From positions 1 to 35,526 of the forward strand of contig JAFAZW010000057.1 in NCBI GenBank assembly GCA_019239415.1: 35,526 nt of DNA. Reading direction: 5' to 3'. Source of the stretch: Alphaproteobacteria bacterium (GTDB taxonomy: Bacteria > Pseudomonadota > Alphaproteobacteria > Sphingomonadales > Sphingomonadaceae). The position numbers were made by a program, and so were the translations under genes. The notes under the pieces were generated by a model that was not told where the DNA came from, made no database searches, and saw only the letters and a list, made by a program, of their open reading frames with translations. Within the stretch, counting starts at the first letter, position 1. Each line of letters begins with the position of its first letter. Shown piece after piece: positions 994 through 32,020 of this stretch.

Positions 994-2298
994 GTGAAGC
1001 TGCTGCGCGAGCCGTTCAACCAGACCCGCCTCGGCCGCCGCTTCCGCTCCATCGCCCTCGTCGAGCAGCTCGGGCCGGGGCTCGTCACCGGCGCGGCGGA
1101 CGACGATCCGAGCGGCATCGCCACTTACTCGCAGGCGGGGGCGCAGTTCGGCTACGGGATATTGTGGACGGCGGTGCTCACCTATCCGCTAATGTCGTCG
1201 ATCCAGCTGGTCAGCGCCCAGATCGGCCGGGTCACCGGCTGCGGCCTCGCCAAGAACATGGGCGAGACCCTGTGGCGGCCGGCGGTGCTGGCGCTGGTCG
1301 CCCTGCTCTTCGTCGCCAACACGATCAACATCGGCGCGGATCTTTCCGCCATGGCCGCCGCGGCGGAGCTGGTCGCGGGGCGGAGCGACGCGCATCACCT
1401 CTTGCTGATCGGCTTCGCGCTCGTCAGCCTCCTCCTCCAGCTCTTCGTCCCCTACCGCCGCTATGCCCGCTACCTGAAATGGCTGACGCTCAGCCTGTTC
1501 AGCTACGTCGCCGTGCTGCTCGTCGTGAACGTGCCGTGGGGTGAGGCGCTCGCCGGCATGGTCTGGCCGAACCTGCCGTGGCAGGCGGCGGTCACCACGA
1601 TCGTCGCGGTGTTCGGCACGACGATCAGCCCCTATCTCTTCTTCTGGCAGAGCGCGCAGGAGGTGGAGGAGGTCGCCGCCAAGGGTGAGCGGCCGCTCGC
1701 CCGGGCGCCGCGGGAGGCGCCGCACGAGTTGAGGCGGATGCGCCTCGACACCTTCACCGGCATGGCCTTTTCGAACCTCATCGCGCTGGCGATCATGATC
1801 GCGACCGCCGCCACGCTCCACGCCCACGGCAAGACGGACATCGCCACCGCCGCCGAAGCGGCCGAGGCGCTGCGGCCGGTGGCGGGCGACTTCGCCTTCC
1901 TGCTGTTCGCCCTCGGCATCGTCGGGACGGGGCTGCTCGCCGTGCCGGTCCTCGCCGGCTCCGCGGCCTTCGCGATCGGCGAGGCGAACGGCTGGAAGTG
2001 CGGCCTGGAATACAAGCCGTGGGAAGCGGCCGGCTTCTACGCCGTGATCGGGGTCGCCACCCTGCTCGGCATCGCCTTCCACTGGGCCGGGATCAGCGCG
2101 GTCAAAGCACTCTACTGGAGCGCCGTTCTCAACGGCGTCGTCGCGGTGCCGATCATGGCGGCGATGATGGTCGTCGTCTCGCGCCATCGCGTCATGGGCC
2201 GCTTCGCCGGCAAGGGCGCCCTCCTCGCCTTCGGATGGACCGCAACCGCCGTCATGGCCGCCGCGACGCTGGCAATGTTCGCGACATGGGGAAGCTGA
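994..2298 (+). CDS. NRAMP-like divalent metal transporter (non-canonical)
   Basis: A 434-residue inner-membrane protein of the SLC11/NRAMP fold with about 11-12 hydrophobic segments. The N-terminal LGPGLVTGAADDDPSGIA (residues 26-43) aligns with the first discontinuous helix, where canonical manganese/iron transporters carry DPGN; here the motif is DDPSG (37-41). The sixth helix, normally with the Met-Pro-His metal site, reads FGTTISPYLFFWQ (207-219), so the soft-metal methionine is absent. Divergent NRAMP clades lacking that Met are known to carry other ions such as magnesium or aluminium, so manganese specificity should not be assumed. The start is GTG at 994 with GAGG five bases upstream. 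The gene overlaps the next one by 13 nt, implying coupled expression with the porin. Confidence 0.85.
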   Translation: MKLLREPFNQTRLGRRFRSIALVEQLGPGLVTGAADDDPSGIATYSQAGAQFGYGILWTAVLTYPLMSSIQLVSAQIGRVTGCGLAKNMGETLWRPAVLALVALLFVANTINIGADLSAMAAAAELVAGRSDAHHLLLIGFALVSLLLQLFVPYRRYARYLKWLTLSLFSYVAVLLVVNVPWGEALAGMVWPNLPWQAAVTTIVAVFGTTISPYLFFWQSAQEVEEVAAKGERPLARAPREAPHELRRMRLDTFTGMAFSNLIALAIMIATAATLHAHGKTDIATAAEAAEALRPVAGDFAFLLFALGIVGTGLLAVPVLAGSAAFAIGEANGWKCGLEYKPWEAAGFYAVIGVATLLGIAFHWAGISAVKALYWSAVLNGVVAVPIMAAMMVVVSRHRVMGRFAGKGALLAFGWTATAVMAAATLAMFATWGS

Positions 2299-3602
2299 GC
2301 CTCCCGTTCGTCGCGACGGCGGCCGTCGTCGCGGCGCCGGCGCACGCGCAGGAGACGCCGGCGAAGGACGAGGCCTATGCCGTCCACGTCCAGTCGACCT
2401 TCACCCTCCAGTCCGTCCTCCCGTTCCACGCGGCCTACGCAGGGCCGAACAGCCTGCCCTCGCGCGGCCAGACCCGCGAGACGTTCGACCTCACCCTCTA
2501 CGGCGGCGTGCGGCCCTGGCGTGGGGCGGAGCTCTGGGCGAACGGCGAGATCGACCAGGGCTTCGGCATCGGCAACACGCTCGGCGCCGCGGGCTTCCCC
2601 TCCGGCGAGGCCTATAAGGTCGGCAAGGCCGAGCCCTATGCGCGGCTCCAGCGCCTGCTCCTGCGCCAGACGATCGGGCTCGGCGGCGGCGACGAGGCGG
2701 TCGCGCCGGACCAGAACCAGCTCGGCGGCCGCCGCGCCGCCGACCGGCTCGTCGTCACGCTCGGCAAGATCAGCGTCGTCGACATCTTCGACGCCAATGG
2801 TTTCGCGCATGACCCGCGCGGCGACTTCCTCAACTGGGCGCTCGTCGATACGGCCGCCTTCGACTATGCCGCCGAAGCCTGGGGCTACACGCTCGGCGGC
2901 GCCGCCGAGCTGTGGAAGGGCCCGTGGACCGGCCGGGCCGGCTTCTTCAACCTGTCCAAGGTTCCCAACGGCGAGGTGCCGGGCCGCGACTTCAGCCAGT
3001 ATCAGGCGATCGGCGAGATCGAGCACCGCCACAGCCTCGGCGGCCATCCGGGCGCGGTCCGCCTCGGGGCCTGGCGCAACCGCGGCCGGTTCAGCAGCTT
3101 CGCCGACGCCCTCGCCCGCGCCGCCGCGACCGGCGCCCCGCCGGACCCCGGGCCGACGCGCCGCATGCGCAGCCGCAGCGGATTCTACGTCAACGCCGAG
3201 CAGGAGGCGAGCCGGGACCTCGGCCTGTTCCTTCGCGCCGGCGTCGCCGACGGCGCGATCGAACCCTATGACTTCACCGACGTCGACCGCGGCCTCTCCT
3301 TGGGGGGCAGCCTCAAGGGTCGGGGCTGGGGCCGCCGCGGCGACCGCGTCGGCATCGGCCTGGCCGTCAACGGCATCTCCGCCGTCCACCGCCGCTACCT
3401 CGCCGCCGGCGGCCTCGGCATCCTGGTCGGCGACGGGCGGCTCGACCGGTACGGCACCGAGCAGGTCGCCGAGGCCTGGTACGATCTCGGCCTCGGCAAG
3501 GCGCATCTGACGCTCGACGGCCAGCTGCTGCGCCACCCGGCCTACAACCGGGACCGAGGCCCCGCCGCCGTCGTCGCGCTCCGGGCGCACGCCGGCTTCT
3601 GA
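2286..3602 (+). CDS. OprB-like carbohydrate porin, outer membrane
   Basis: A 438-residue protein starting at ATG 2286, inside the end of the transporter gene. The frame is open further upstream, but this start gives a clean signal peptide (MGKLSLPFVATAAVVAAPAHA, cleaved before QETPAKDEAY). The mature part shows alternating beta-strand character and OprB-type segments such as DRLVVTLGKISVVDIFD, a motif around GDFLNWALVDTAAFDYAAE, and RAGFFNLSKVPN, and it ends in Phe (AHAGF), as expected for BAM-assembled outer-membrane barrels. OprB-family proteins are 16-stranded sugar porins. The overlap with an NRAMP-like transporter suggests the barrel may instead admit the transporter's ion or its chelate; that link is inferred from gene order alone. 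Confidence 0.8.
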   Translation: MGKLSLPFVATAAVVAAPAHAQETPAKDEAYAVHVQSTFTLQSVLPFHAAYAGPNSLPSRGQTRETFDLTLYGGVRPWRGAELWANGEIDQGFGIGNTLGAAGFPSGEAYKVGKAEPYARLQRLLLRQTIGLGGGDEAVAPDQNQLGGRRAADRLVVTLGKISVVDIFDANGFAHDPRGDFLNWALVDTAAFDYAAEAWGYTLGGAAELWKGPWTGRAGFFNLSKVPNGEVPGRDFSQYQAIGEIEHRHSLGGHPGAVRLGAWRNRGRFSSFADALARAAATGAPPDPGPTRRMRSRSGFYVNAEQEASRDLGLFLRAGVADGAIEPYDFTDVDRGLSLGGSLKGRGWGRRGDRVGIGLAVNGISAVHRRYLAAGGLGILVGDGRLDRYGTEQVAEAWYDLGLGKAHLTLDGQLLRHPAYNRDRGPAAVVALRAHAGF

Positions 3603-3621
3603 CGGCGGGAAACACACGGTG

Positions 3622-3658
3622 GGGACACGTACTTTTCCCGCGAAAAAGTACGTGTCCC
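3622..3658. terminator. Long hairpin, bidirectional terminator / dispersed repeat
   Basis: GGGACACGTACTTTTC (3622-3637) pairs with GAAAAAGTACGTGTCCC (3642-3658) across a CCGC loop, with a single bulged A. It sits between convergent genes (porin ending at 3602, pgl ending at 3667), and the A/T tracts in the stem fit termination in both directions. The sequence resembles a repeat type I associate with sphingomonad genomes. Confidence 0.7.
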
Positions 3659-3666
3659 TGTTCCCC

Positions 3667-4368
3667 CTACGCCTCGTCGGGGCTCCAGAAGATGTCGACC
3701 GGGGACTCGATCGAGGCGAGGAGCCGGCCGATGGGCAAGGGGGAGAGCGGGCCGTCCTTGATCGCCCGTTCCAGCACCGCCCGCTTCTTCGCGCCGGCGA
3801 TGACGATCATGACGGTGCGCGCCTCGGTGAGCGTCGGCGCGGTCAGGGTGACGAGATCGCCTTCGGGCGTCTTCACGCCGACGGCGCGGCGACCGCGGGG
3901 GGCGTCGAGGATGCGCTGGAGGTCGGCGCCGGCGACGAGACCGGCGGTGCCGCCCGCCTCGTCCATGCCGAGGCAGACGAAGTCGAGCGGCCAGCGCAGC
4001 AGCGACAGGCGGGCGTCGGCGAGACGGGCCGCTTCCACCGGGTTGCCGAGGGCGCTTTCATCGACCAGCGAGAGGATCTCCGCGCCCTGGGCCGCGAACC
4101 AGCCTTCGAGCATCCGGTAGCGGCTGTCGGGCGCGGCGAGCGGCACGAGGCGGTCGGCCGTCGGGAGCAGCGACACCTTGCTCCAGTCGAAGCCCTTCGA
4201 CTTCGCCAGCGCCGAGAAGAGCGCGTCGAGCCCCGTCTCCCCCGGCAGCGCGAGGCGGGCGCCGCCATGCGCCTCGATCGCGCTTTCGACGACGAAGCCG
4301 ATGTCGCCGGCCGCCTGTTCGGCCAGCTCCGCCGCCGTGTCGAATTCCCACCATTCCAGCTCGTCCAT
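3667..4368 (-). CDS. pgl: 6-phosphogluconolactonase
   Basis: A 233-residue NagB/DevB-type lactonase that hydrolyses 6-phosphoglucono-1,5-lactone to 6-phosphogluconate in the Entner-Doudoroff/pentose-phosphate route. Supporting segments are the N-terminal LALPGETGLDALFSALA (a GGxTP-like phosphate loop in degenerate form), the DWSKVSLLPTADRLVP stretch that corresponds to the family's W..V.....DER region, DFVCLGMDEAGGTAGLVAG (the GMG.DGH region, here GMDEAGGTA) and the C-terminal RTVMIVIAGAKKRAVLERA. The canonical DER and GDGH motifs are both relaxed, so this is a divergent member. The frame extends upstream to 4644, but the ATG at 4368 gives the family length and the expected N-terminus. It faces the porin and shares its terminator. 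Confidence 0.8.
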   Translation of the reverse strand: MDELEWWEFDTAAELAEQAAGDIGFVVESAIEAHGGARLALPGETGLDALFSALAKSKGFDWSKVSLLPTADRLVPLAAPDSRYRMLEGWFAAQGAEILSLVDESALGNPVEAARLADARLSLLRWPLDFVCLGMDEAGGTAGLVAGADLQRILDAPRGRRAVGVKTPEGDLVTLTAPTLTEARTVMIVIAGAKKRAVLERAIKDGPLSPLPIGRLLASIESPVDIFWSPDEA

Positions 4369-4446
4369 CTCTCGCCCTTCGTTTCGGAACCGCTCCCAGC
4401 GGACGCGGGTTCGTGGCCTTTGCGGGGGCGTTAGAGGAGTTGAGCC

Positions 4447-4632
4447 ATGCCTGCCAAATCGAAAGCGCAGCAAAAGGCCGCGGGGGCCGCCCTTTCGGCC
4501 AAGCGCGGCGACACGCCGAAGAGCAAGCTGAAGGGCGCGTCCAAGTCGATGGCCGAGTCGATGAGCGAGAAGGAGCTCGAGAAGATGGCGTCGACGAAGC
4601 GCAAGGGAAAGCCGGAGCACGTCGGGGATTGA
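4447..4632 (+). CDS. DUF3008 small basic protein
   Basis: A 61-residue Lys/Ala-rich protein (MPAKSKAQQKAAGAALSAKR...) matching the DUF3008 family, which has no established function. It is very hydrophilic, with repeated KSK/KGAS motifs and a SEKELEKMASTKRKGKPEH tail typical of the family. A good ribosome-binding site (GAGGAG, 4433-4438) precedes the ATG. It is followed by a strong hairpin at 4660-4694 that probably terminates the transcript. Confidence 0.85.
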   Translation: MPAKSKAQQKAAGAALSAKRGDTPKSKLKGASKSMAESMSEKELEKMASTKRKGKPEHVGD

Positions 4633-23591: not shown

Positions 23592-23675
23592 GCCCCGCCG
23601 CCGGCCGGACTGCGGCCGGACTGCGCGTGCGCGCGGATTGACTTTCCCTGGCCGCCCCCGCATTTGCGCCGCGCG

Positions 23676-23749
23676 GGCCCGATGGCGGAGTGGTTACGCA
23701 GAGGACTGCAAATCCTTGCACGCCGGTTCGATTCCGGCTCGGGCCTCCA
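23676..23749 (+). tRNA. tRNA-Cys(GCA)
   Basis: It begins GGCCCGATGGCGGAGTGGTT; the acceptor GGCCCGA pairs with TCGGGCC at 23739-23745, followed by discriminator T and encoded CCA. The anticodon arm AGGACTGCAAATCCT has anticodon GCA, and the T-arm is CCGGTTCGATTCCGG. Confidence 0.97.
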
Positions 23750-23876
23750 CTCTCCCCTGAAACCAGCCGGAATGGCCGCGTCGCCGCCGCGCTTTTCGCG
23801 TTGCCATGGACGGCGTCCGCTCGGTAATAGAGCCTCAGACGCCTTCCAGAGCGTTGGTCAACAGGGAGACCTCCTT

Positions 23877-26543
23877 ATGTCATTCGAGAAGAGCCTCGTG
23901 CGCATCGGCGCGCTTGCCACGGTCGGCACGTTCGCGATGATCGCCAGCCAGGGCGCACAGGCGCAAGGCGCGACCTGCGGCACCTATAACGCCGGCACCA
24001 TCGTCAACCCCGCCCAGGGCACCGCCACCGGCACCAGGTCGACAGCCTGCGGCAATCTCGCCAGCGCGACCGCCACCTCCTCGACCGCCGTCGGCGACCG
24101 TGCCTTCGCCAGCGCCAACTTCTCGACCGCCCTCGGCGACTTCGCCGCCGCGACCGCCGTCTCCTCGACCGCCGTCGGCGACGCTGCCAGCGCCCTGGCG
24201 CAGAACGCGACAGCGACCGGCGCCAACGCCAATGCGACCGCCGTCGACGCGTCCGCCTACGGTGCCGGCTCCCAGGCCACCGGCATCGCCTCGACCGCGA
24301 TGGGCAGCAGCGGCGCCGTCGCCGGCGGCACCCGCCAGAACATCGCCGCGGGCGGCTACAGCACCGCTGTCGGCACCGGCAACCAGGTGGCGGTCGGCGC
24401 CACCGGCGGCACGGCCGTCGGCGATAACAATACGATCGCCGCCACCGGCACCTTCTCCTCCGCCTTCGGCCAGTTCAACACGGTGAGCGGCGCGAACTCG
24501 ATCGCGCTCGGCGTGAGCAACATCGCCAGCGGCGCCAACACCATGGCGGGCGGCAACCTCGCCCTCGCTTCCGGCGCGCAGGGCACGGCGCTCGGCTTCC
24601 GCACCACCGCGAGCGGCACCTCCTCGACCGCGCTCGGCGACCGCGCCTTCGCCTCGGGCAACTTCTCGACCGCGCTCGGCGATTTCGCCGCCGCCACCGC
24701 GACCTCGTCGACCGCCATCGGCGACGCGGCCAGCGCGCTTGCGACCAATGCCAGCGCCATCGGCCGCAACGCCAACGTGACGGTCGCCGGCACCAACGGC
24801 ACCGCGCTCGGCAACGCCTCGATCGTCTCCGCCGCCAACGGCACCGCGGTCGGCAACACCGCTCTCGCCTCGGGCGTCAACGGCACCGCGCTCGGCAACA
24901 CCACGACGGCGAGCGGCCAGTCCTCGACCGCGGTCGGCGACCGCGCCGTTGCGTCCGGCGCCTTCTCGACGGCGCTCGGCGACTTCGCGGCCGCGACCGC
25001 GACCTCGTCGACGGCGGTCGGCGATGCCGCGAGCGCGCTCGCGACCAACGCCAGCTCCTATGGACGCAACGCCAACGTCACCGCCGCCGGCACCAACGGC
25101 ACCGCGCTCGGCAATGCGTCGGTCGTCTCGGCCGCCAACGGCACCGCCGTCGGCAACACCGCCGTCGCCTCCGCCGCCAACGGCACGGCCGTCGGCAACA
25201 CGACGACGGCGAGCGGCACCTCGGCAACGGCGGTCGGCGACCGCGCCGTCGCCTCGGGCAATTTCGGCACCGCGCTGGGCGACTTCGCCGCGGCGACCGG
25301 CACCCAGTCGACCGCGACCGGCGATGCGGCGAGCGCTCTCTCGACCAATTCGTCGTCCTACGGCAGCAACGCCAACGTCGCGCTGGCGGCGACCAACGGC
25401 ACCGCGCTCGGCGCGCAGTCCGCCGTCACCGCGGTCAACGGCACCGCCGTCGGCTGGCGTACCGCCGCCACCGGCACCTCGTCGACCGCGCTCGGCGACC
25501 GCGCCGCGGCTTCCGGCGCCGGCGCGAATGCGATCGGCCTCACCGCCGTCGCGTCCGCGGCCAACGCCAATGCGATCGGCACGAACGCCCGGGCGACCGG
25601 CACCAACGCCATCGCGATCGGCACCAACGCCCTCGCCACCGGCTCGGTCGCGGTCGGCGCCAATTCGACGGCGTCGAACGGCGGCGCGGCCTATGGCGAC
25701 AACAGCACGGCGACCGGCGTCAACGCGACGGCGATCGGCCCGACGGCGTCGGCCACCGGGCAGTCGGCGAGCGCGTTCGGCGACCGCTCGGTCGCGTCCG
25801 CCAATTTCGCGACCGCGATCGGCGACTTCGCCGCCGCCACCGGCGTCCAGTCGACGGCGGTCGGCGACTCGTCGAGCGCCCTCGCCCAGAACGCCACCGC
25901 GCTCGGCCGCAACGCCAATGTCGGCGCGGCGGGCACCAATGCGACGGCGGTCGGCGCCAACTCGACGGCGAACTTCGCCAACTCGACGGCGATCGGCACC
26001 GGCGCCACGACGACGGCGGCCAACCAGGTGACGATCGGCGGCGCCGGCTCGTCGGTCCGCTTCGGCGGCTACACCACCGCCGGCGTGCTGGTGAACGACG
26101 TCAACGGCAACATCACCACCAACACGACCCTGCTGGGCCAGGTGGCGACCAACACGGCCAACATCACTACCCTCCAGGGCCAGGTCGGCACGCTCAACAC
26201 CAACGTGGCGGCGCTGCAGAGCACGGTGACCACCCAAGGCAGCGCCATCGCCGCGCTGCAGGGCCAGACCTCGACCCTGTTCAGCCTCACCGACGCCAAC
26301 CGGCGCGATATCCGCAAGGCCAATGAGGGCGTCGCCATGGCGCTCGCGATGGACACGCCTTTCATTCCGTCGGACGCCAGCTTCGCCGTGTCCGGCGGGG
26401 TCGGCTATTATCGCGACCGGCTCGCCGGCACGGCCGCGTTCGCGGCCCGGGTCGGACCGATGACGTCCTTCTCGGCCGGCGTCGGCGTCGGCTTCGACAG
26501 CGGCTCGGTCGGCGCCCGCGCGGGCTTCCAGCACGCGTGGTAA
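23877..26543 (+). CDS. YadA-like trimeric autotransporter adhesin
   Basis: An 888-residue surface protein (type Vc secretion). Signal peptide: residues 1-29, ending GAQA before QGATC. Head: about 55-750, made of around 45-50 imperfect 14-residue YadA/Hep-Hag units (pattern A-x-A-x-G-x-x-STAVGD-x-A), very rich in Ala, Thr, Gly, Ser and Asn. A left-handed coiled-coil stalk follows (ITTLQGQVGTLNTNVAALQS, about 752-805). The C-terminal YadA anchor, about 806-888, has RRDIRKANEGVAMALAMD, a beta-strand region with GGVGYYRDRLAG, and terminal Trp. Three chains form the pore that exports the head. ATG 23877 follows GGGAG; the frame is open upstream through tRNA-Cys, which rules out the longer start. 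Confidence 0.95.
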   Translation: MSFEKSLVRIGALATVGTFAMIASQGAQAQGATCGTYNAGTIVNPAQGTATGTRSTACGNLASATATSSTAVGDRAFASANFSTALGDFAAATAVSSTAVGDAASALAQNATATGANANATAVDASAYGAGSQATGIASTAMGSSGAVAGGTRQNIAAGGYSTAVGTGNQVAVGATGGTAVGDNNTIAATGTFSSAFGQFNTVSGANSIALGVSNIASGANTMAGGNLALASGAQGTALGFRTTASGTSSTALGDRAFASGNFSTALGDFAAATATSSTAIGDAASALATNASAIGRNANVTVAGTNGTALGNASIVSAANGTAVGNTALASGVNGTALGNTTTASGQSSTAVGDRAVASGAFSTALGDFAAATATSSTAVGDAASALATNASSYGRNANVTAAGTNGTALGNASVVSAANGTAVGNTAVASAANGTAVGNTTTASGTSATAVGDRAVASGNFGTALGDFAAATGTQSTATGDAASALSTNSSSYGSNANVALAATNGTALGAQSAVTAVNGTAVGWRTAATGTSSTALGDRAAASGAGANAIGLTAVASAANANAIGTNARATGTNAIAIGTNALATGSVAVGANSTASNGGAAYGDNSTATGVNATAIGPTASATGQSASAFGDRSVASANFATAIGDFAAATGVQSTAVGDSSSALAQNATALGRNANVGAAGTNATAVGANSTANFANSTAIGTGATTTAANQVTIGGAGSSVRFGGYTTAGVLVNDVNGNITTNTTLLGQVATNTANITTLQGQVGTLNTNVAALQSTVTTQGSAIAALQGQTSTLFSLTDANRRDIRKANEGVAMALAMDTPFIPSDASFAVSGGVGYYRDRLAGTAAFAARVGPMTSFSAGVGVGFDSGSVGARAGFQHAW
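24621..25520 (+). repeat. 300-bp tandem repeats inside the adhesin head
   Basis: The block beginning TCCTCGACCGCGCTCGGCGA recurs at 24621, 24921 and 25221, exactly 300 bp (100 residues) apart, and again at 25479 after 258 bp, which is one 14-residue unit shorter. Long stretches such as NVTAAGTNGTALGNAS and TALGDFAAATATSSTA are nearly identical between copies. Such units are prone to recombine and change adhesin length. Confidence 0.85.
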
Positions 26544-27079: not shown

Positions 27080-27155
27080 GGCTTGGCAGTAATCGCGGGC
27101 AGGCTTGAATCTTTCGACGCTTTCGATAGAGACGCGACAGCAGGGAGAGTTTTTC

Positions 27156-27290
27156 ATGAAGGACCAGACGATGCAGAAGGCGGTCAAGCGCTCGTGGGAG
27201 CGCCCCGAATTCCGGCGTCTTCGCGCAGGGGCGGCGGAGAGCACGCACAATGCGAATTCCGACGGCGGCGGCGGCAACCAGGGTTCGTAA
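27156..27290 (+). CDS. RiPP precursor peptide, putative lasso/paeninodin-like
   Basis: A 44-residue peptide starting at ATG 27156 with GGAGAG seven bases upstream. The leader-like part has Trp14, Pro17, Phe19 and Leu22 in SWERPEFRRLRAG, matching the Tyr/Trp-x2-Pro-x-Leu pattern that RiPP-recognition domains bind in lasso leaders. The C-terminal part, AAESTHNANSDGGGGNQGS, is rich in Gly, Ser and Asn and ends in Ser44. Acidic residues available for ring closure are Glu28 and Asp36. Rings of 7, 8 or 9 residues closing on Asp36 would start at Thr30, Ser29 or Glu28, none being the usual Gly. An earlier in-frame ATG at 27105 has no ribosome-binding site. A terminator follows immediately, then the cyclase-like and kinase-like genes. 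Confidence 0.7.
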   Translation: MKDQTMQKAVKRSWERPEFRRLRAGAAESTHNANSDGGGGNQGS

Positions 27291-27315
27291 CGCGCCTCCG
27301 ATCGAGTTTGAAGGG

Positions 27316-27342
27316 CCCTCCGCCGTGAGGCGGGGGGTTTTT
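27316..27342 (+). terminator. Intrinsic terminator/attenuator between precursor and cyclase genes
   Basis: CCCTCCGCC (27316-27324), loop GTGA, GGCGGGGGG (27329-27337), then TTTTT (27338-27342): a GC-rich stem with one T-G wobble and a U-tract. It ends three bases before the ATG of the next gene, so the G-run that could act as its ribosome-binding site is inside the stem. It would give abundant precursor mRNA and little readthrough into the enzyme genes. Confidence 0.8.
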
Positions 27343-27344
27343 CT

Positions 27345-29267
27345 ATGAGCGCGATCGCGGGTTTGTGGACCTTCGGCGCGGACGCCGGCCCCGAGAGCGA
27401 GCGCGCCTGCGAGGCGATGCTCGCGGCGCAACGGGCGTTCGGCCCCGACGATACGGCGACGCTCGGGCACGGCGGCCTTCACCTGGGCCGCAACCTGTTC
27501 CGCCTCGTGCCCGAAGATCGGTTCGACCGCCAGCCACTCCTCTCCGCCGCCCGGACTACCGCTCTCGTCGCCGACCTGCGACTCGACAACCGGGAGGAGA
27601 TCGCGACCGCGCTCGGCCTCGGCGCCGGCGACAGCCGCGGCCTCGCCGATGCCGAGCTTCTCCTCGCGGCGCTCGAACGCTGGGACGTGGACGCCATCCC
27701 CCGCCTTCTCGGCGACTTCGCCTTCGCCTGGTTCGACGCGGCGCGGCAGCGGCTCGTGCTCGCCCGGGATCCGCTCGGGCAGCGGCCGCTCTTCTGGCAC
27801 CGCGGCAACGGCGCCCTCGCCTTCGCCTCGATGCCGGTCGGGCTGCACGCGCTCGACGCCGTCCCGCGCGACGCCGATGGCGACAGCCTCGCCCGCTACC
27901 TCGGCAGCCTGCCGCTCGCCGGCGCCGCCAGCTTCTACCGCGGCATCCACCGGGTCGAGCCCGGCCATGTCGTCGAGGCGACGCCGGGAGGGGTGACGGG
28001 CCGCCGCTGGTGGACGCCGTCTCCGCCGAAGCTGCGCCTCCGGCGCTTCGAAGACTATGTCGCGGCGTTCCGGGACGAGCTCGACGCGGCGGTGGGACGA
28101 CGTCTGCGCGGCGTCGAGACGGTGGTCGCGTCCCACCTCAGCGGCGGGTGGGACAGCAGCGCGGTGACCGCCACCGCCGCCCGCCTCGCCCCCGCCACGC
28201 GCATCGTCGCGCTCACCGCCGTCCCCCGCCGCCCGCAGCAGGCGCCGCCGAACCGCTTCGCCGACGAGGCGCCGCTCGCCGCCGCCACCGCGGCCCTCTA
28301 TCCCAACGTCGACCATATCGTGGTCCCGCACCCGGACCGCTCCCCCCTTGCCGACATGGACCGGAACCGGGCGGCATTCGACCGCCCGAGCTTCAACCCC
28401 TGCAACCACGTCTGGCTGGCCGCGCTGCGCGACCGCGCGCGCGAGGCGGGTGCGCGCGTGCTGCTGACCGGCGAAATCGGCAATTGGACGATGAGCGCTT
28501 CGCCCAATACGCTGCTGGCCGACTATCTGCGCGAGGGCCGGTGGCGCGACTGGCTGCGCGAGGCCGCGGCGATGAAACGGGCCCGGCGCGCAAGGCTGCG
28601 GGGGGTGCTCGCCAGCTCGTTCGGCCCCTGGGTCCCGGATGCGCTGTGGCGGCTGCTCCAGCCCTTCTCATCGGCGCCGGACCCGGCCGAGGTCACGGCG
28701 CTGCACCCGGCGTTGCGCGCCGCTCTGGCCGAGGAGCAGCGGTCGCTCGGGGTCGGCGCGGCGCGGCGGCCGAACGACTATTTCGCCTACGCGCGGCAGG
28801 CCTTCCTCACCGAAATGGACTTCGGCCAGTATCGCAAGGGCATCCTCGGCGGATGGGGCATCGACAAGCGCGACGCGACGGCCGATCGCAGGCTGGTCGA
28901 ATTCTGTCTGTCCCTGCCGCTCGAGATGCTGCTCAGCGACGGGCAGCGGCGCCCGCTCGCCCGCGTCGCCCTCGCCGACCGCCTGCCCGCCGCCGTGCTC
29001 GACGCCCGCGGCAAGGGCTACCAGGCGGCGGACTGGCACGAGGCGCTCACCCGCGACCGCCCGGCCATCGCCGCCCTGGTCGATGCGATCGCCGCGGACC
29101 CGAAGGCGTCTTCGATCGTCGACCTGGACTGGCTTCGCGCCGCCCTCGCCGCGTGGCCGGCGGGCGGCTGGGAGGACCGCGCGATCATCGTGCGCTACCG
29201 CATCGCCCTGCTGATGGCGCTGTCGGCGGGTCACTTCGCCTTGTCGGCGACCGCGCGCGACCGCTAA
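27345..29267 (+). CDS. Asparagine-synthetase-like enzyme, putative lasso cyclase
   Basis: A 640-residue protein with an N-terminal class II glutamine-amidotransferase fold and a C-terminal ATP-pyrophosphatase domain. The catalytic Cys2 of AsnB is missing (MSAIAGLW), so ammonia from glutamine is unlikely. The fold remnants DLRLDNREEI, FDAARQRLVLARDPLGQRPL and FYRGIHRVEPGHVV are kept. The PP-loop is intact, SGGWDSS at residues 266-272, so it can adenylate a carboxylate. Loss of Cys2 with a kept PP-loop is typical of lasso C proteins, which activate an Asp/Glu side chain for macrolactam formation. The gene lies directly after the precursor and ten bases before the kinase-like gene. An alternative is an amide-forming enzyme for another small molecule. 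Confidence 0.85.
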   Translation: MSAIAGLWTFGADAGPESERACEAMLAAQRAFGPDDTATLGHGGLHLGRNLFRLVPEDRFDRQPLLSAARTTALVADLRLDNREEIATALGLGAGDSRGLADAELLLAALERWDVDAIPRLLGDFAFAWFDAARQRLVLARDPLGQRPLFWHRGNGALAFASMPVGLHALDAVPRDADGDSLARYLGSLPLAGAASFYRGIHRVEPGHVVEATPGGVTGRRWWTPSPPKLRLRRFEDYVAAFRDELDAAVGRRLRGVETVVASHLSGGWDSSAVTATAARLAPATRIVALTAVPRRPQQAPPNRFADEAPLAAATAALYPNVDHIVVPHPDRSPLADMDRNRAAFDRPSFNPCNHVWLAALRDRAREAGARVLLTGEIGNWTMSASPNTLLADYLREGRWRDWLREAAAMKRARRARLRGVLASSFGPWVPDALWRLLQPFSSAPDPAEVTALHPALRAALAEEQRSLGVGAARRPNDYFAYARQAFLTEMDFGQYRKGILGGWGIDKRDATADRRLVEFCLSLPLEMLLSDGQRRPLARVALADRLPAAVLDARGKGYQAADWHEALTRDRPAIAALVDAIAADPKASSIVDLDWLRAALAAWPAGGWEDRAIIVRYRIALLMALSAGHFALSATARDR

Positions 29268-29277
29268 GGCGCCGGCG

Positions 29278-30207
29278 ATGACCTCCGCTGCCCCCGGCCA
29301 CATCTACGCGCTGTTCGGCCTCATCGTCCGCTCCCAGATCCCGCTGCCGATGGGGGAGGTCGCCGCCGCCGGGCCGGCCGACGTGGACGTCGCTTACGGC
29401 CGCATCGACCTGCCGGCGCAGCCGCGCTGGGGCTATGCCGAGGTCGACGGGGGGACCTTGCTCTCGGTCGAAGATGTCGGCCGGTTCCTGATCCGCGACG
29501 GCGCGCGCATCCTCGTCGATCCCGACCCGGCGGGGTCGGAGCGCAACATCCGGCTGTTTCTGCTCGGCTCGGCCTTCGGCGCACTGCTCCACCAGCGCGG
29601 GCTGATGCCGCTCCACGCCAACGCCGTGGTCCTGGGCGGCCGCGCCTTCGCCTTTTGCGGCCATTCGGGCGCCGGCAAGTCCACCATGGCGGCCTGGTTC
29701 CACGACCAGGGCCATCCGATTCTCGCCGACGACGTCTGCGTGCTCGGCTTCGACGCGGCCGGCGCCCCCCTCGCGTATCCCGGCGTTCCGCGTCTCAGGC
29801 TGTGGCGCGAGGCGCTGGAGGAATTCGGGCGCCGCGCCGACGACTATCAACGTTCGTTCGACGACATGGACAAATATGACGTGCCGATCGCCGGCGAAGG
29901 CGGCGCCGCCGAGCCCGTCCCGCTCGCCGCCGTCTACCTGCTCGCGAAGGCCGAGGAGGGCGCGGCGGCGGGAAGCATCCAGCGCCTGACGGGAATCGCC
30001 GCCGTCGACGCGCTCGTCGCCAACACCTATCGCGGCTTCTACCTGGAGGCGATCGGAGGGACCGGTCCGCACCTCGCCACCTGCGTGCGGCTCGCCAGGA
30101 CCGTCCCCGTCTTCCGGGCCGCGCGCGTCTGGGGGTTCGACTCCTTCGCCGCCGAGGCGGCGCGGCTCGACGCCCACGCGCGCGACCTCGGTCAGGGCGC
30201 GCGGTAG
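29278..30207 (+). CDS. HPr-kinase-like protein, putative precursor-peptide kinase
   Basis: A 309-residue protein whose core matches the HprK catalytic domain: [20 protein letters not shown] contains His113 (the HprK His position), the P-loop GHSGAGKST at 128-136 follows, and [11 protein letters not shown] (146-156) carries the Asp-Asp of the Walker-B-like region. The N-terminal 100 residues are not the HprK regulatory domain, and no HPr or phosphotransferase gene is nearby. Kinases of this type in paeninodin-like clusters phosphorylate the C-terminal serine of the lasso precursor, and the precursor here ends in Ser44. That substrate is inferred. Its 3' end overlaps the convergent amidohydrolase gene by 16 nt. 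Confidence 0.85.
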
Positions 30208-31445
30208 ACGGTCCCGCCCTTCATCACGAACCGCACCGCGCGTACGGCGGATATGGCGCGGGTCGGATCGCCGTCCACCGCGACGAGGTCGGCGAGCAGG
30301 CCGGGCTTCACCGCGCCGATCCGGTCGGCGAGGCCGAAAATGCGGGCATTGCCGGCGGTGGCGGCGATCAGCACGTCCGCCGGACGCATGCCGTAGGCCG
30401 CCATGAGCTCCATCTCGCGGGCATTGTCGCCGTGCGCGAAGACGCCGACGTCGCCGCCCATGCACATCGTCACGCCGGCGGCGAGGGCGGCGGCGAAGCT
30501 CTCCCGCTTTTCGCGAATTCCCGCCGGCTCGGGCCCCTGGCCGTTCCAGCCGCGATAGCGGGCGATGGCATCGCCCGCGGCCACCGTGGGGCACAGCGCC
30601 ACCCCCCGCTCCTTCATCAGCCGGAAGATCTCCGGCGTCCCGGCGTCGCCATGCTCGATCGTATCGACCCCGGCGAGGATGGCCCGCCGCATCCCCTCGG
30701 GCGTGCCGGCATGGACGGCGACCTTGCGGCCGGCGCCGTGCGCGGCTTCGACCGCCATCTTCATCTCGTCGAGGGTGAAGGTCGGGCGGCTCGCCTCGCC
30801 CGGCCGCCAGCGATAGTCGCCGTACAGCTTCACCCAGTCGGCGCCGGCGCCGATCTGGCGCCGCACCGCCGTCAGCAGGCCCGGGCCGTCCGCTTCCTCG
30901 GCGCCGCGCGCGACGAATTCAGGCTCGGCATTCTTGGGTCCGTAGGCGCCGGTGGCGACGATGGCGCGGGTCACGACCAGCATCCGCGGCCCGGGCACGA
31001 TGCCCTGCTCGATCGCCTGCTTCAGGCCCACATCGGCGTAGCCGGCGCCTTCGGTGCCGAGGTCGCGCGTGGTGGTGAACCCCGCCATCAGGGTCGCGCG
31101 GGCGTGGTTGACGGCGCGGGCGGTGCGCAGCGCCAGCGGCTCCTTCAGCACCTGATCGTCCCACGGCGTTTCGTCATAGGGGTGGAGGAAGAGGTGCGAA
31201 TGGCCTTCGATCATGCCGGGCATCAGCGTCGCCCCGGGCAGCTCGATGACCCGGGCACCGGCCGGCGCGGCGAGGTTGGGGCCGGCCGCCTCGATCCTGT
31301 CGCCGCGCACCAGCACCGACCAGCCTTCGTGCGGGCGCGGATCGACGCCGTCGAACACCCGCGCCGGCCTCAGCAACACGGCCGCCGGTTGGGCGGCCGC
31401 CGGCCAGGGCAGGAGCAGGAGCAGCAGGGCGAGGACGAGGCGCAT
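30192..31445 (-). CDS. Exported metal-dependent amidohydrolase
   Basis: A 417-residue protein with a signal peptide ([19 protein letters not shown]). It is an amidohydrolase-superfamily enzyme of the imidazolonepropionase/prolidase-like group: His-x-His in [17 protein letters not shown], a carboxylated-lysine candidate in [11 protein letters not shown], further His ligands in [11 protein letters not shown] and [11 protein letters not shown], and Asp in [12 protein letters not shown]. Members of this exported group cleave dipeptides with C-terminal residues such as Pro or Arg, or related amides. A peptide-hydrolase role next to the RiPP cassette is tempting but not shown. The start is 31445, not the open frame further upstream, because only this gives a signal peptide. 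Confidence 0.88.
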
Positions 31446-31504
31446 GCGAGTCTCCCGGGCAGCGGCGGGCGCACCATAAGCGGCACGATGCGCCGTGCAA
31501 CGGC

Positions 31505-32020
31505 TCACAGGCGGGGACGCCGCTCCAGGATCGCGCGCAGGCGGGTCTTGGCGCGCTGGCAACGCAGCATCACCGCATTGGCGGAAATGCCGAGGATCGC
31601 GGCCATCTCGCCATAGCTGAAGCCCTCGAAGCAGAGCACGATGGCCTCCCGCTGCGGCACCGGCAGGAGCTGGATCGAGGCGTCGAGCCGCCGCCTCTGG
31701 TCGTTCCTCAGCGCGAGCTCGTCGGGTGGCGGCGCCGCGCAGGCGAGGTCCGGCGGCAGCGCCACCTGCCGCGGCTCACGCGCCCGCCGCGCGACGTGGG
31801 ACAGGCAGCGCTTCTGCGCCACCGACGTCACGAACGTCTTGAGCGACGCGGAGCCCCGATAGGCGTCGAGCGCGATCCACAAGGCGAGCAGGATGTCCTG
31901 GACCAGCTCGCGCCGCAGCACCGGATCCGATTCATGCGTGAAGGCGATGCGGGTGATGACGCGCCGGCACGAGGCGCTCACCTCCTCGAACAGTTGCTCT
32001 TTGGCCGCGTTCGTGCCCAT
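31505..32020 (-). CDS. Sigma-70 family (ECF-type) RNA polymerase sigma factor
   Basis: A 171-residue two-domain sigma factor. Region 2 includes [20 protein letters not shown] and [17 protein letters not shown]; region 4 is [20 protein letters not shown] followed by [24 protein letters not shown], a clear helix-turn-helix. No anti-sigma factor or zinc-binding partner is encoded beside it. It lies 59 bases upstream of the amidohydrolase on the same strand, so the two may be co-transcribed, and it is divergent from the phosphotransferase-like gene. Confidence 0.9.

What the first reader, a model, noticed from the sequence alone, without database searches (positions are those of the whole stretch)
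27156..30207. Compact RiPP cassette pairing a lasso-cyclase-like enzyme with an HPr-kinase-like peptide kinase
Seen: a 44-residue peptide ending in Ser, an AsnB-like protein lacking Cys2 but with an intact SGGWDSS PP-loop, and an HprK-like protein with GHSGAGKST, all in one orientation and within 3.1 kb. Known: lasso C proteins share these AsnB features, and HprK-like kinases in paeninodin-type clusters phosphorylate a C-terminal Ser. Inferred: this locus makes a C-terminally phosphorylated, ring-closed peptide in a sphingomonad.
Basis: partly seen in the sequence, partly recalled or inferred. Interest (0 to 1): 0.85.

Follow-up and report, generated by a model that had tools for sequence, protein, structure and literature searches.

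The report
Split lasso-peptide cassette with peptide kinase
A three-gene bacterial cassette very probably makes a small ring-closed peptide tagged with phosphate at its tail, but it lacks the two genes that normally trim such peptides, and another contig of the same genome carries recognisable copies of those two.

Summary
27156-27290 encodes a 44-residue peptide ending in Ser; 27345-29267 an AsnB-like protein without Cys2 (SGGWDSS); 29278-30207 an HprK-like protein (GHSGAGKST). The peptide is not chance: profiles of relatives that exclude it find it at E 4.2e-7 to 2.1e-6 among 632 frames; the next frame scores 0.25-0.28. Cyclase and kinase are homologous to proteins in complete lasso-peptide clusters of Alphaproteobacteria. 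The kinase keeps the eight motif residues of the characterised lasso kinase BsfK at identical spacing. The genome's one Transglut_core3 (B2) match and one Pfam PqqD (B1) match lie on contig C35, with a second precursor whose leader shares RLRAGAAE, and no kinase match. Best reading: a satellite A-C-K cassette matured with B1/B2 in trans. All 15 related precursors collected have Ala where lasso leaders usually have Thr(-2), in the register I prefer, and end in Ser (partly selected for). Ring closure, threading, phosphorylation and trans-processing are inferred, not shown. New variant of a known kind.

The parts
27143..27149 (+). GGGAGAG, ribosome-binding-site-like stretch before the precursor gene
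   Evidence: read directly
27156..27290 (+). A: 44-aa precursor peptide, WERPEF leader motif, terminal Ser
   Evidence: profiles that exclude it: E 4.2e-7, 5.6e-7 and 2.1e-6; alignment of 14
27240..27287 (+). predicted core STHNANSDGGGGNQGS (residues 29-44): ring Ser1-Asp8, tail GGGGNQGS, Ser16 as phosphorylation site; alternative core starts at Thr30 (ring Thr1-Asp7)
   Evidence: inference from the invariant Ala at W+13 and the acidic residue that follows at core position 7-9
27310..27343 (+). 15-bp hairpin whose 3' arm ends in a T run, between A and C: likely leaky terminator
   Evidence: -28.8 kcal/mol, z -2.80, 3 of 200 shuffles as good; not among the 3 sites of the simple terminator scan
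27345..29267 (+). C: AsnB-like lasso cyclase, 640 aa, no Cys2, SGGWDSS
   Evidence: NF033535 4.6e-75, below cut-off; 36-48% identical to the cyclases of the 10 fetched loci that hold both B1 and B2
29278..30207 (+). K: HprK/PEPCK-like peptide kinase, 309 aa, H113, G128-x2-G-x-G-K134-S135, D151-D152
   Evidence: AlphaFold2 pLDDT 87.2, the 50 Foldseek matches displayed are PEPCKs

Best explanation
The locus is a lasso-peptide-type RiPP cassette reduced to precursor (A), ring-forming cyclase (C) and precursor kinase (K). A is translated; K phosphorylates the C-terminal Ser44 of the linear precursor. The leader motif WERPEF is bound by a PqqD-type B1 and the leader is cut after Glu28 by a B2 peptidase, both supplied in trans by the cluster on contig C35. 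C then activates Asp36 with ATP and joins it to the new N-terminus (Ser29), giving an 8-residue ring with an 8-residue Gly-rich, phosphorylated tail. Shown here: the genes, their homology, conserved motif residues, no recognised B1/B2 in the window and one match each on C35. Inferred: phosphorylation, cleavage site, ring closure, threading and use of the C35 B1/B2.
For: C and K are homologous to proteins in complete lasso clusters: of the 23 fetched stretches with a C of 550 aa or more, 10 also carry both B1 and B2 and 13 carry K; the window is the only one with C and K but neither B1 nor B2 in the stretch held. In the genome Transglut_core3 and Pfam PqqD each match once, both on C35; the B2 passes the lasso B2 model NF033537 (76 bits, cut-off 33); a PqqD-like protein of another system, on C96, escapes Pfam. 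C35 also has a precursor sharing the leader stretch RLRAGAAE, a second C (48%) and a nucleotidyltransferase, but no K match at E<=0.001, so the two loci complement each other. Dispersal in the same genus: in G768 two precursor candidates (profile E 0.0017 and 0.0025; the second 4.6e-5) lie at 0.61 and 2.60 Mb, B1-C-B2 at 2.61 Mb, K at 2.90 Mb. K keeps H-G-G-G-K-S-D-D with exactly BsfK's spacing. A separate short HprK-like match exists (C76), so K need not be the housekeeping HPr kinase.
Against: No direct evidence of trans-processing; the window leader differs from the C35 leader at 5 of 15 positions. C does not group with the C35 cyclase (which pairs with Sphingomonas parva) and has no supported sister. 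The tail GGGGNQGS has no bulky residue to hold a thread. The characterised kinase BsfK modifies Ser3, not the last residue (PMC10368454, abstract and passages). G301 has a precursor-cyclase pair but no Transglut_core3 match at all, so B2 may not be needed everywhere. The assembly is in 103 contigs at 97.4% completeness with 3% contamination, so a further B1/B2 could be missing or C35 misbinned (its tetranucleotide correlation with the window is 0.968-0.980, but loci of other genomes reach 0.972, so this says little).
Confidence: 0.62

Rival explanations
1. C works without B1 and B2: leader removal by a general protease, or ring closure without it, as reported for pseudomycoidin.
For: Pseudomycoidin synthesis in the absence of leader and leader peptidase is in print (title in the reference lists seen; the paper itself is not held). 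G301 has an A-C pair of this type and no Transglut_core3 match in a genome rated 100% complete.
Against: The leader motif is kept in all 14 aligned relatives (the motif was partly selected for), which suggests that something binds it; B1/B2 exist in this genome.
Confidence: 0.13
2. The product is an unthreaded macrolactam or stays linear, in the manner of the linear polyphosphorylated peptides (LPPs) of Bacillota.
For: The tail GGGGNQGS, like GAGGHTGS of G238, lacks bulky plug residues; LPP clusters share enzymes with paeninodin clusters (PMC13381572, passages).
Against: LPP clusters lack a cyclase; here C is present with intact motifs, 10 bases before K, and an acidic residue sits at core position 7-9 in 14 of 14 aligned precursors.
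Confidence: 0.15
3. A decaying cluster that has lost B1 and B2 and makes nothing.
For: No B1/B2 locally; parts of the pathway are scattered in some relatives too.
Against: A, C and K are intact with their motifs, in frame, third-position GC 0.84, 0.92 and 0.91.
Confidence: 0.08
4. Not a RiPP: an AsnB or beta-lactam-synthetase-like enzyme beside a regulatory HPr kinase, with an accidental short ORF.
For: Solved relatives of C include a hydroxyamidotransferase (7ylz, best) and beta-lactam synthetase (1jgt); K's best solved sequence relatives are HprK, E 3.7e-4.
Against: The short ORF scores E 4.2e-7 to 2.1e-6 against profiles that exclude it; relatives of C and K lie with B1, B2 and precursors; a separate short HprK-like match is present.
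Confidence: 0.02

Closest known systems
Paeninodin-type (phosphorylated class II) lasso peptide clusters, incl. SyanA/SyanK of Sphingobium yanoikuyae and PadeK/ThcoK
   Same: HprK-like K with His-Lys-Asp-Asp motif, C-terminal Ser in the precursor, AsnB-like C (PMC9266682 and PMC8498205, passages; I saw no SyanA or PadeA sequence)
   Different: B1, B2 and a transporter are not recognised in the cassette; Ala instead of Thr at leader position -2 (preferred register); Gly-rich tail with no evident plug
bsf lasso cluster of Bradymonas sediminis (BsfK, Ile(-2))
   Same: K motif residues at identical spacing; non-Thr residue at -2 (PMC10368454, abstract, passages and two sections)
   Different: BsfK modifies Ser3; -2 is Ile/Val there, Ala here; bsf is a complete cluster
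Pseudomycoidin (psm) cluster
   Same: A, C, K core; lasso formation reported without leader and leader peptidase (title only)
   Different: psm carries its nucleotidyltransferase and B2 (passages); here the nucleotidyltransferase and B2 are on C35
Linear polyphosphorylated peptides (LPPs)
   Same: RRE protein and phosphorylating enzymes acting on a short peptide (PMC13381572, passages)
   Different: LPPs lack the cyclase that is present here
HPr-rel-A system (TIGR04352/TIGR04353)
   Same: HprK-like kinase with PqqD-like partner; the genome's C96 locus is one
   Different: window K scores 24.2 bits against a cut-off of 200

Membership tests
Lasso peptide biosynthesis | precursor leader with [Y/W]xxPx[L/V/I/A/F/Y] | tested here: met
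   WERPEF; W and P invariant in 14 of 14 aligned precursors, which were partly picked by W..P; motif wording from a PMC13381572 passage
Lasso peptide biosynthesis | Thr at leader position -2 (usual, not universal: Ile/Val known) | tested here: not met
   Ala27 in the preferred register, Glu28 in the other; Ala at W+13 in all 14 aligned and in a 15th found later; T at W+13 in 5 of 7 Thr-bearing W-type precursors that I picked
Lasso peptide biosynthesis | Asp/Glu at core position 7-9 | tested here: met
   Asp36 = core 8 (or 7)
Lasso peptide biosynthesis | AsnB-like cyclase without Cys2, intact PP-loop | tested here: met
   MSAIAG..., SGGWDSS; the relatives whose N-terminus aligns also lack Cys2; NF033535 253.5 bits, below cut-off 525 as are C of two complete clusters
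Lasso peptide biosynthesis | B1 (RRE) and B2 (peptidase) in the cluster | tested here: not met
   none in the window; one match each in the genome, both on C35
Lasso peptide biosynthesis | threaded macrolactam product | not testable with these tools
   needs mass spectrometry and NMR or ion mobility
Paeninodin-type lasso kinase | His-Lys-Asp-Asp motif with P-loop | tested here: met
   H113, G128, G131, G133, K134, S135, D151, D152: constant offset of 35 from BsfK
Paeninodin-type lasso kinase | C-terminal Ser of precursor as substrate | tested here: inconclusive
   terminal Ser present in 15 of 15 (searches partly selected for it); activity not tested
HPr kinase (HprK) | Hpr_kinase_C domain over cut-off | tested here: not met
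   14.9 bits, cut-off 33.3
HPr-rel-A kinase TIGR04352 | curated score 200 | tested here: not met
   24.2 bits; C96 paralogue 243.8; the kinase of a complete lasso cluster, L028, also fails with 54.3
Asparagine synthetase B | N-terminal Cys2 nucleophile | tested here: not met
   Ser2; an AsnB-like frame on C70 has MCGIAG
LPP | absence of a macrolactam cyclase | tested here: not met
   C present

The most novel reading that the evidence does not exclude
A modular lasso pathway: one shared B1/B2 pair processes precursors from several separately placed A-C or A-C-K cassettes carrying a distinct Ala(-2) leader class, and in Gly-tailed members such as this one the (poly)phosphate that K puts on the last Ser takes the place of a bulky plug residue that keeps the tail threaded.
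Probability: 0.15. Interest if true: 0.72.

Novelty: new variant of a known kind. Interest (0 to 1): 0.47.

Why it matters
Cluster-based genome mining expects A, B and C together. If cassettes like this one borrow B1 and B2 from elsewhere, lasso-type peptides of this sort are easily overlooked, and the genome offers a clean test of how far one RRE/peptidase pair can serve several precursors. The kinase and Gly-rich tail also make it possible to ask what the unexplained C-terminal phosphate of lasso peptides is for.

Tried and rejected
Rejected: K as the housekeeping HPr kinase (a separate short HprK-like match on C76, 50.8 bits, itself below the model's cut-off). Rejected: K as an HPr-rel-A kinase. 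Rejected: the cassette as a recent copy of C35 (C 48% identical; tree gives the window C no supported sister). Considered and kept as the second choice: core start at Thr30, W at -16, Glu at -2; it gives several precursors Gly1 but leaves L026 a 6-residue ring, below the 7-9 range quoted in PMC11006600 (section read), and puts the invariant Ala at -3.

Led nowhere: simple promoter scan (0 sites); plasmid search gave only relatives under 60% identity; Pfam and NCBIfam name neither A nor the 180-aa protein upstream; literature searches for split or unclustered lasso genes gave no paper on unclustered B1/B2 among the titles and abstract starts listed, in the held open-access library only. I did not see Ala(-2) described in the passages read; I did not search for it by name.

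Limits of counts: precursors were first picked by a W/Y/F..P pattern; the profiles were built from peptides ending in Ser and the filter required Ser, so the 15 of 15 is partly selected; searches had no Ser filter. Three of the ten relatives in the profile had been found with a profile containing the window peptide; one search repeats the test without them. Several genomes counted supplied rows of the profile used. Rows dropped: L084 and L085 (close relatives of L073) and one of two L120 frames left out of the tree, C frames under 550 aa or with E above 1e-30 were dropped, which leaves out the partial cyclase of L027, that of L079, and weak AsnB-like hits in L075, L076, L078 and L081. Stretches held are mostly 13-20 kb, so a gene called absent from a locus may lie just outside.
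Full report
What is there. The window is contig C56 of a 3.49-Mb, 103-contig assembly, 97.4% complete, 3.0% contamination. At 27156-27290 lies a 44-codon gene for MKDQTMQKAVKRSWERPEFRRLRAGAAESTHNANSDGGGGNQGS; at 27345-29267 a 640-aa AsnB-like protein; at 29278-30207 a 309-aa HprK-like protein. The last two are separated by 10 bases. Upstream stand a 180-aa protein without a family match and a YadA-like protein; downstream an amidohydrolase gene runs the other way and overlaps the kinase gene's end by 16 bases.

Is the small gene real? A profile built from ten related precursors, leaving this one out, was run over 632 stop-to-stop frames of the window. The frame holding the peptide scored E 4.2e-7 and the next 0.27. 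Three of the ten had been found with a profile that contained the window peptide; without them the result is 5.6e-7 against 0.28, and without the C35 precursor as well 2.1e-6 against 0.25. The gene has a ribosome-binding-like GGGAGAG. A 15-pair hairpin whose 3' arm ends in a T run lies between it and the cyclase gene (27310-27343, -28.8 kcal/mol, z -2.80), though the simple terminator scan does not list it. Of nine other stretches following precursors that I folded, three show a strong stem close behind the gene (G301 with a T run, G768 without one, G205 weaker); six do not, and no shuffles were run. A leaky terminator after the precursor is my reading.

What the two enzymes are. C scores best with the lasso cyclase model NF033535 (4.6e-75, below its strict cut-off), ahead of asparagine synthase. 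Cyclases of two complete lasso clusters score the same way, but the model also rings on ordinary AsnB-like proteins (6 of 14 control genomes), so the neighbourhoods of relatives are the stronger evidence. C lacks Cys2, like the relatives aligned with it, and keeps the PP-loop. K matches HprK-type models only weakly. Its AlphaFold2 model (pLDDT 87.2, from 5 sequences) finds PEPCK structures in all 50 matches displayed; HprK, not among those 50, is said to share that fold (recalled), and is the best solved relative by sequence (E 3.7e-4). H113, G128, G131, G133, K134, S135, D151 and D152 correspond to BsfK H148 to D187 with a constant offset of 35. BsfK is a demonstrated lasso-precursor kinase (PMC10368454, abstract and passages). 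The genome has a separate short HprK-like match (C76) and an HPr-rel-A kinase (C96).

Relatives. C at E<=1e-100 occurs in 6 of 298 genomes of the family and at E<=1e-90 in 6 of 385 of the class, the window's genome counted in each; K at E<=1e-15 in 98 of 397 of the family. A scan of named genomes gave six loci, one of them partial, labelled Sphingomonas parva, Caulobacteraceae (2), Pseudolabrys, Rhizobium and Alphaproteobacteria. Among the stretches fetched, 23 hold a C of 550 aa or more; 10 also hold B1 and B2, 13 hold K. Complete examples are K-precursor-B1-C-B2 (L023) and K-B1-C-B2-precursor (L028). The window is the only one of the 23 with C and K but neither B1 nor B2. Six hold C with none of B1, B2 and K (L031, L032, L071, L073, L084, L120), and in two stretches a kinase of this type stands without any of them (L069, L070).

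Where B1 and B2 are. The genome has one Transglut_core3 match, at C35:3102-3422, which passes the lasso B2 model, and one Pfam PqqD match, at C35:20192-20392; a PqqD-like protein of the HPr-rel-A system on C96 is missed by Pfam. C35 thus holds, spread over about 20 kb, a nucleotidyltransferase, B2, a second precursor, B1 and a second C, with an outer-membrane efflux protein (Pfam), what look by eye like type I secretion partners, and a long repeat protein in between, but no K match. Its precursor reads WTKPAVARLRAGAAE-VGTRNIAADGPLSSKS against WERPEFRRLRAGAAE-STHNANSDGGGGNQGS here. So C56 has the kinase and C35 the processing enzymes. Scattered parts recur: in G768 (same genus, one contig) precursor candidates lie at 0.61 and 2.60 Mb (weak matches, E 0.0017 and 0.0025; the second 4.6e-5), B1-C-B2 at 2.61 Mb and K at 2.90 Mb; in G205 the precursor-cyclase pair at 2.52 Mb is at least 177 kb from every B1, B2 and strong K match.

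The precursor family. Fourteen precursors were aligned. Trp and Pro of the leader motif and one Ala are invariant; in the preferred register an Asp or Glu stands at core position 7-9 in each; all end in Ser (partly selected for). A fifteenth, in G339, found afterwards (E 5.3e-4), reads WTRPSVKTFDPRQAQ-SGTGSHTD-GPISTPFS and fits every point. The invariant Ala is at W+13; in seven Thr-bearing W-type precursors that I picked from the fetched loci, Thr is at W+13 in five and at W+14 in the other two. I therefore place the cleavage after Glu28, with Ala at -2 in place of the usual Thr, and the ring between Ser29 and Asp36. A start at Thr30 is possible. Strong precursor matches are rare: E<1e-5 in 5 of 397 family genomes and in 2 of 385 class genomes, some of which supplied rows of the profiles.

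Mechanism, with status. Kinase acts on the linear precursor at Ser44 (inferred; precedent PadeK, ThcoK and SyanK, reviewed in PMC9266682 and PMC8498205, passages). B1 of C35 binds WERPEF and B2 cuts (inferred). C forms the lactam (inferred from family). Whether the Gly-rich tail stays threaded is open; G238 has a comparable tail, GAGGHTGS, so it is not a freak. BsfK shows that such kinases may choose another Ser.

Novelty. Phosphorylated lasso peptides with HprK-like kinases are known, also from a sphingomonad. New here are the A-C-K cassette without B1/B2 in a genome where a kinase-less cluster could supply them, and the Ala(-2) leader class. I found no description of either in the searches (listings; passages or sections of five papers, abstract and outline of a sixth), which cover open-access papers only and did not ask for Ala(-2) by name.

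Noticed in passing
G000:C35, L014:1755-8036 and L010:318-8344: A lasso-type gene set (nucleotidyltransferase, B2, precursor, B1, C) is interleaved with what look like type I secretion genes and a long repeat protein.
   Followed up: partly
L015 (G000:C96) 1958-4525: An HPr-rel-A system: PqqD-like chaperone and HprK-related kinase A over their cut-offs, NTP_transf_5 protein and a small protein with a Tat-like signal (by eye).
   Followed up: partly
window 23664-26543: YadA-head-repeat protein (13 matched stretches); the listed TTG start is probably too far upstream.
   Followed up: no
window 30192-31562, strand -: Amidohydrolase (Xaa-Pro dipeptidase-like, below model cut-off) converging on and overlapping the kinase gene by 16 bases.
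   Followed up: no
L029 3122-3322 and 7351-7551; L118 7486-7641: G204 carries three near-identical precursors of this type within about 23 kb, only one right beside the kinase and cyclase genes.
   Followed up: partly
L071 7312-9516 (G301): Precursor-cyclase pair with a terminator-like hairpin after the precursor, in a genome rated 100% complete without any Transglut_core3 match.
   Followed up: partly
L069 8577-9506, L070 8623-9585: The kinase stands alone (in L070 its listed start overlaps a guaA-like gene by ten bases; in L069 it follows an ArsC-like gene; both names by eye), with no C, B1, B2 or precursor recognised in the 17-18 kb held.
   Followed up: partly
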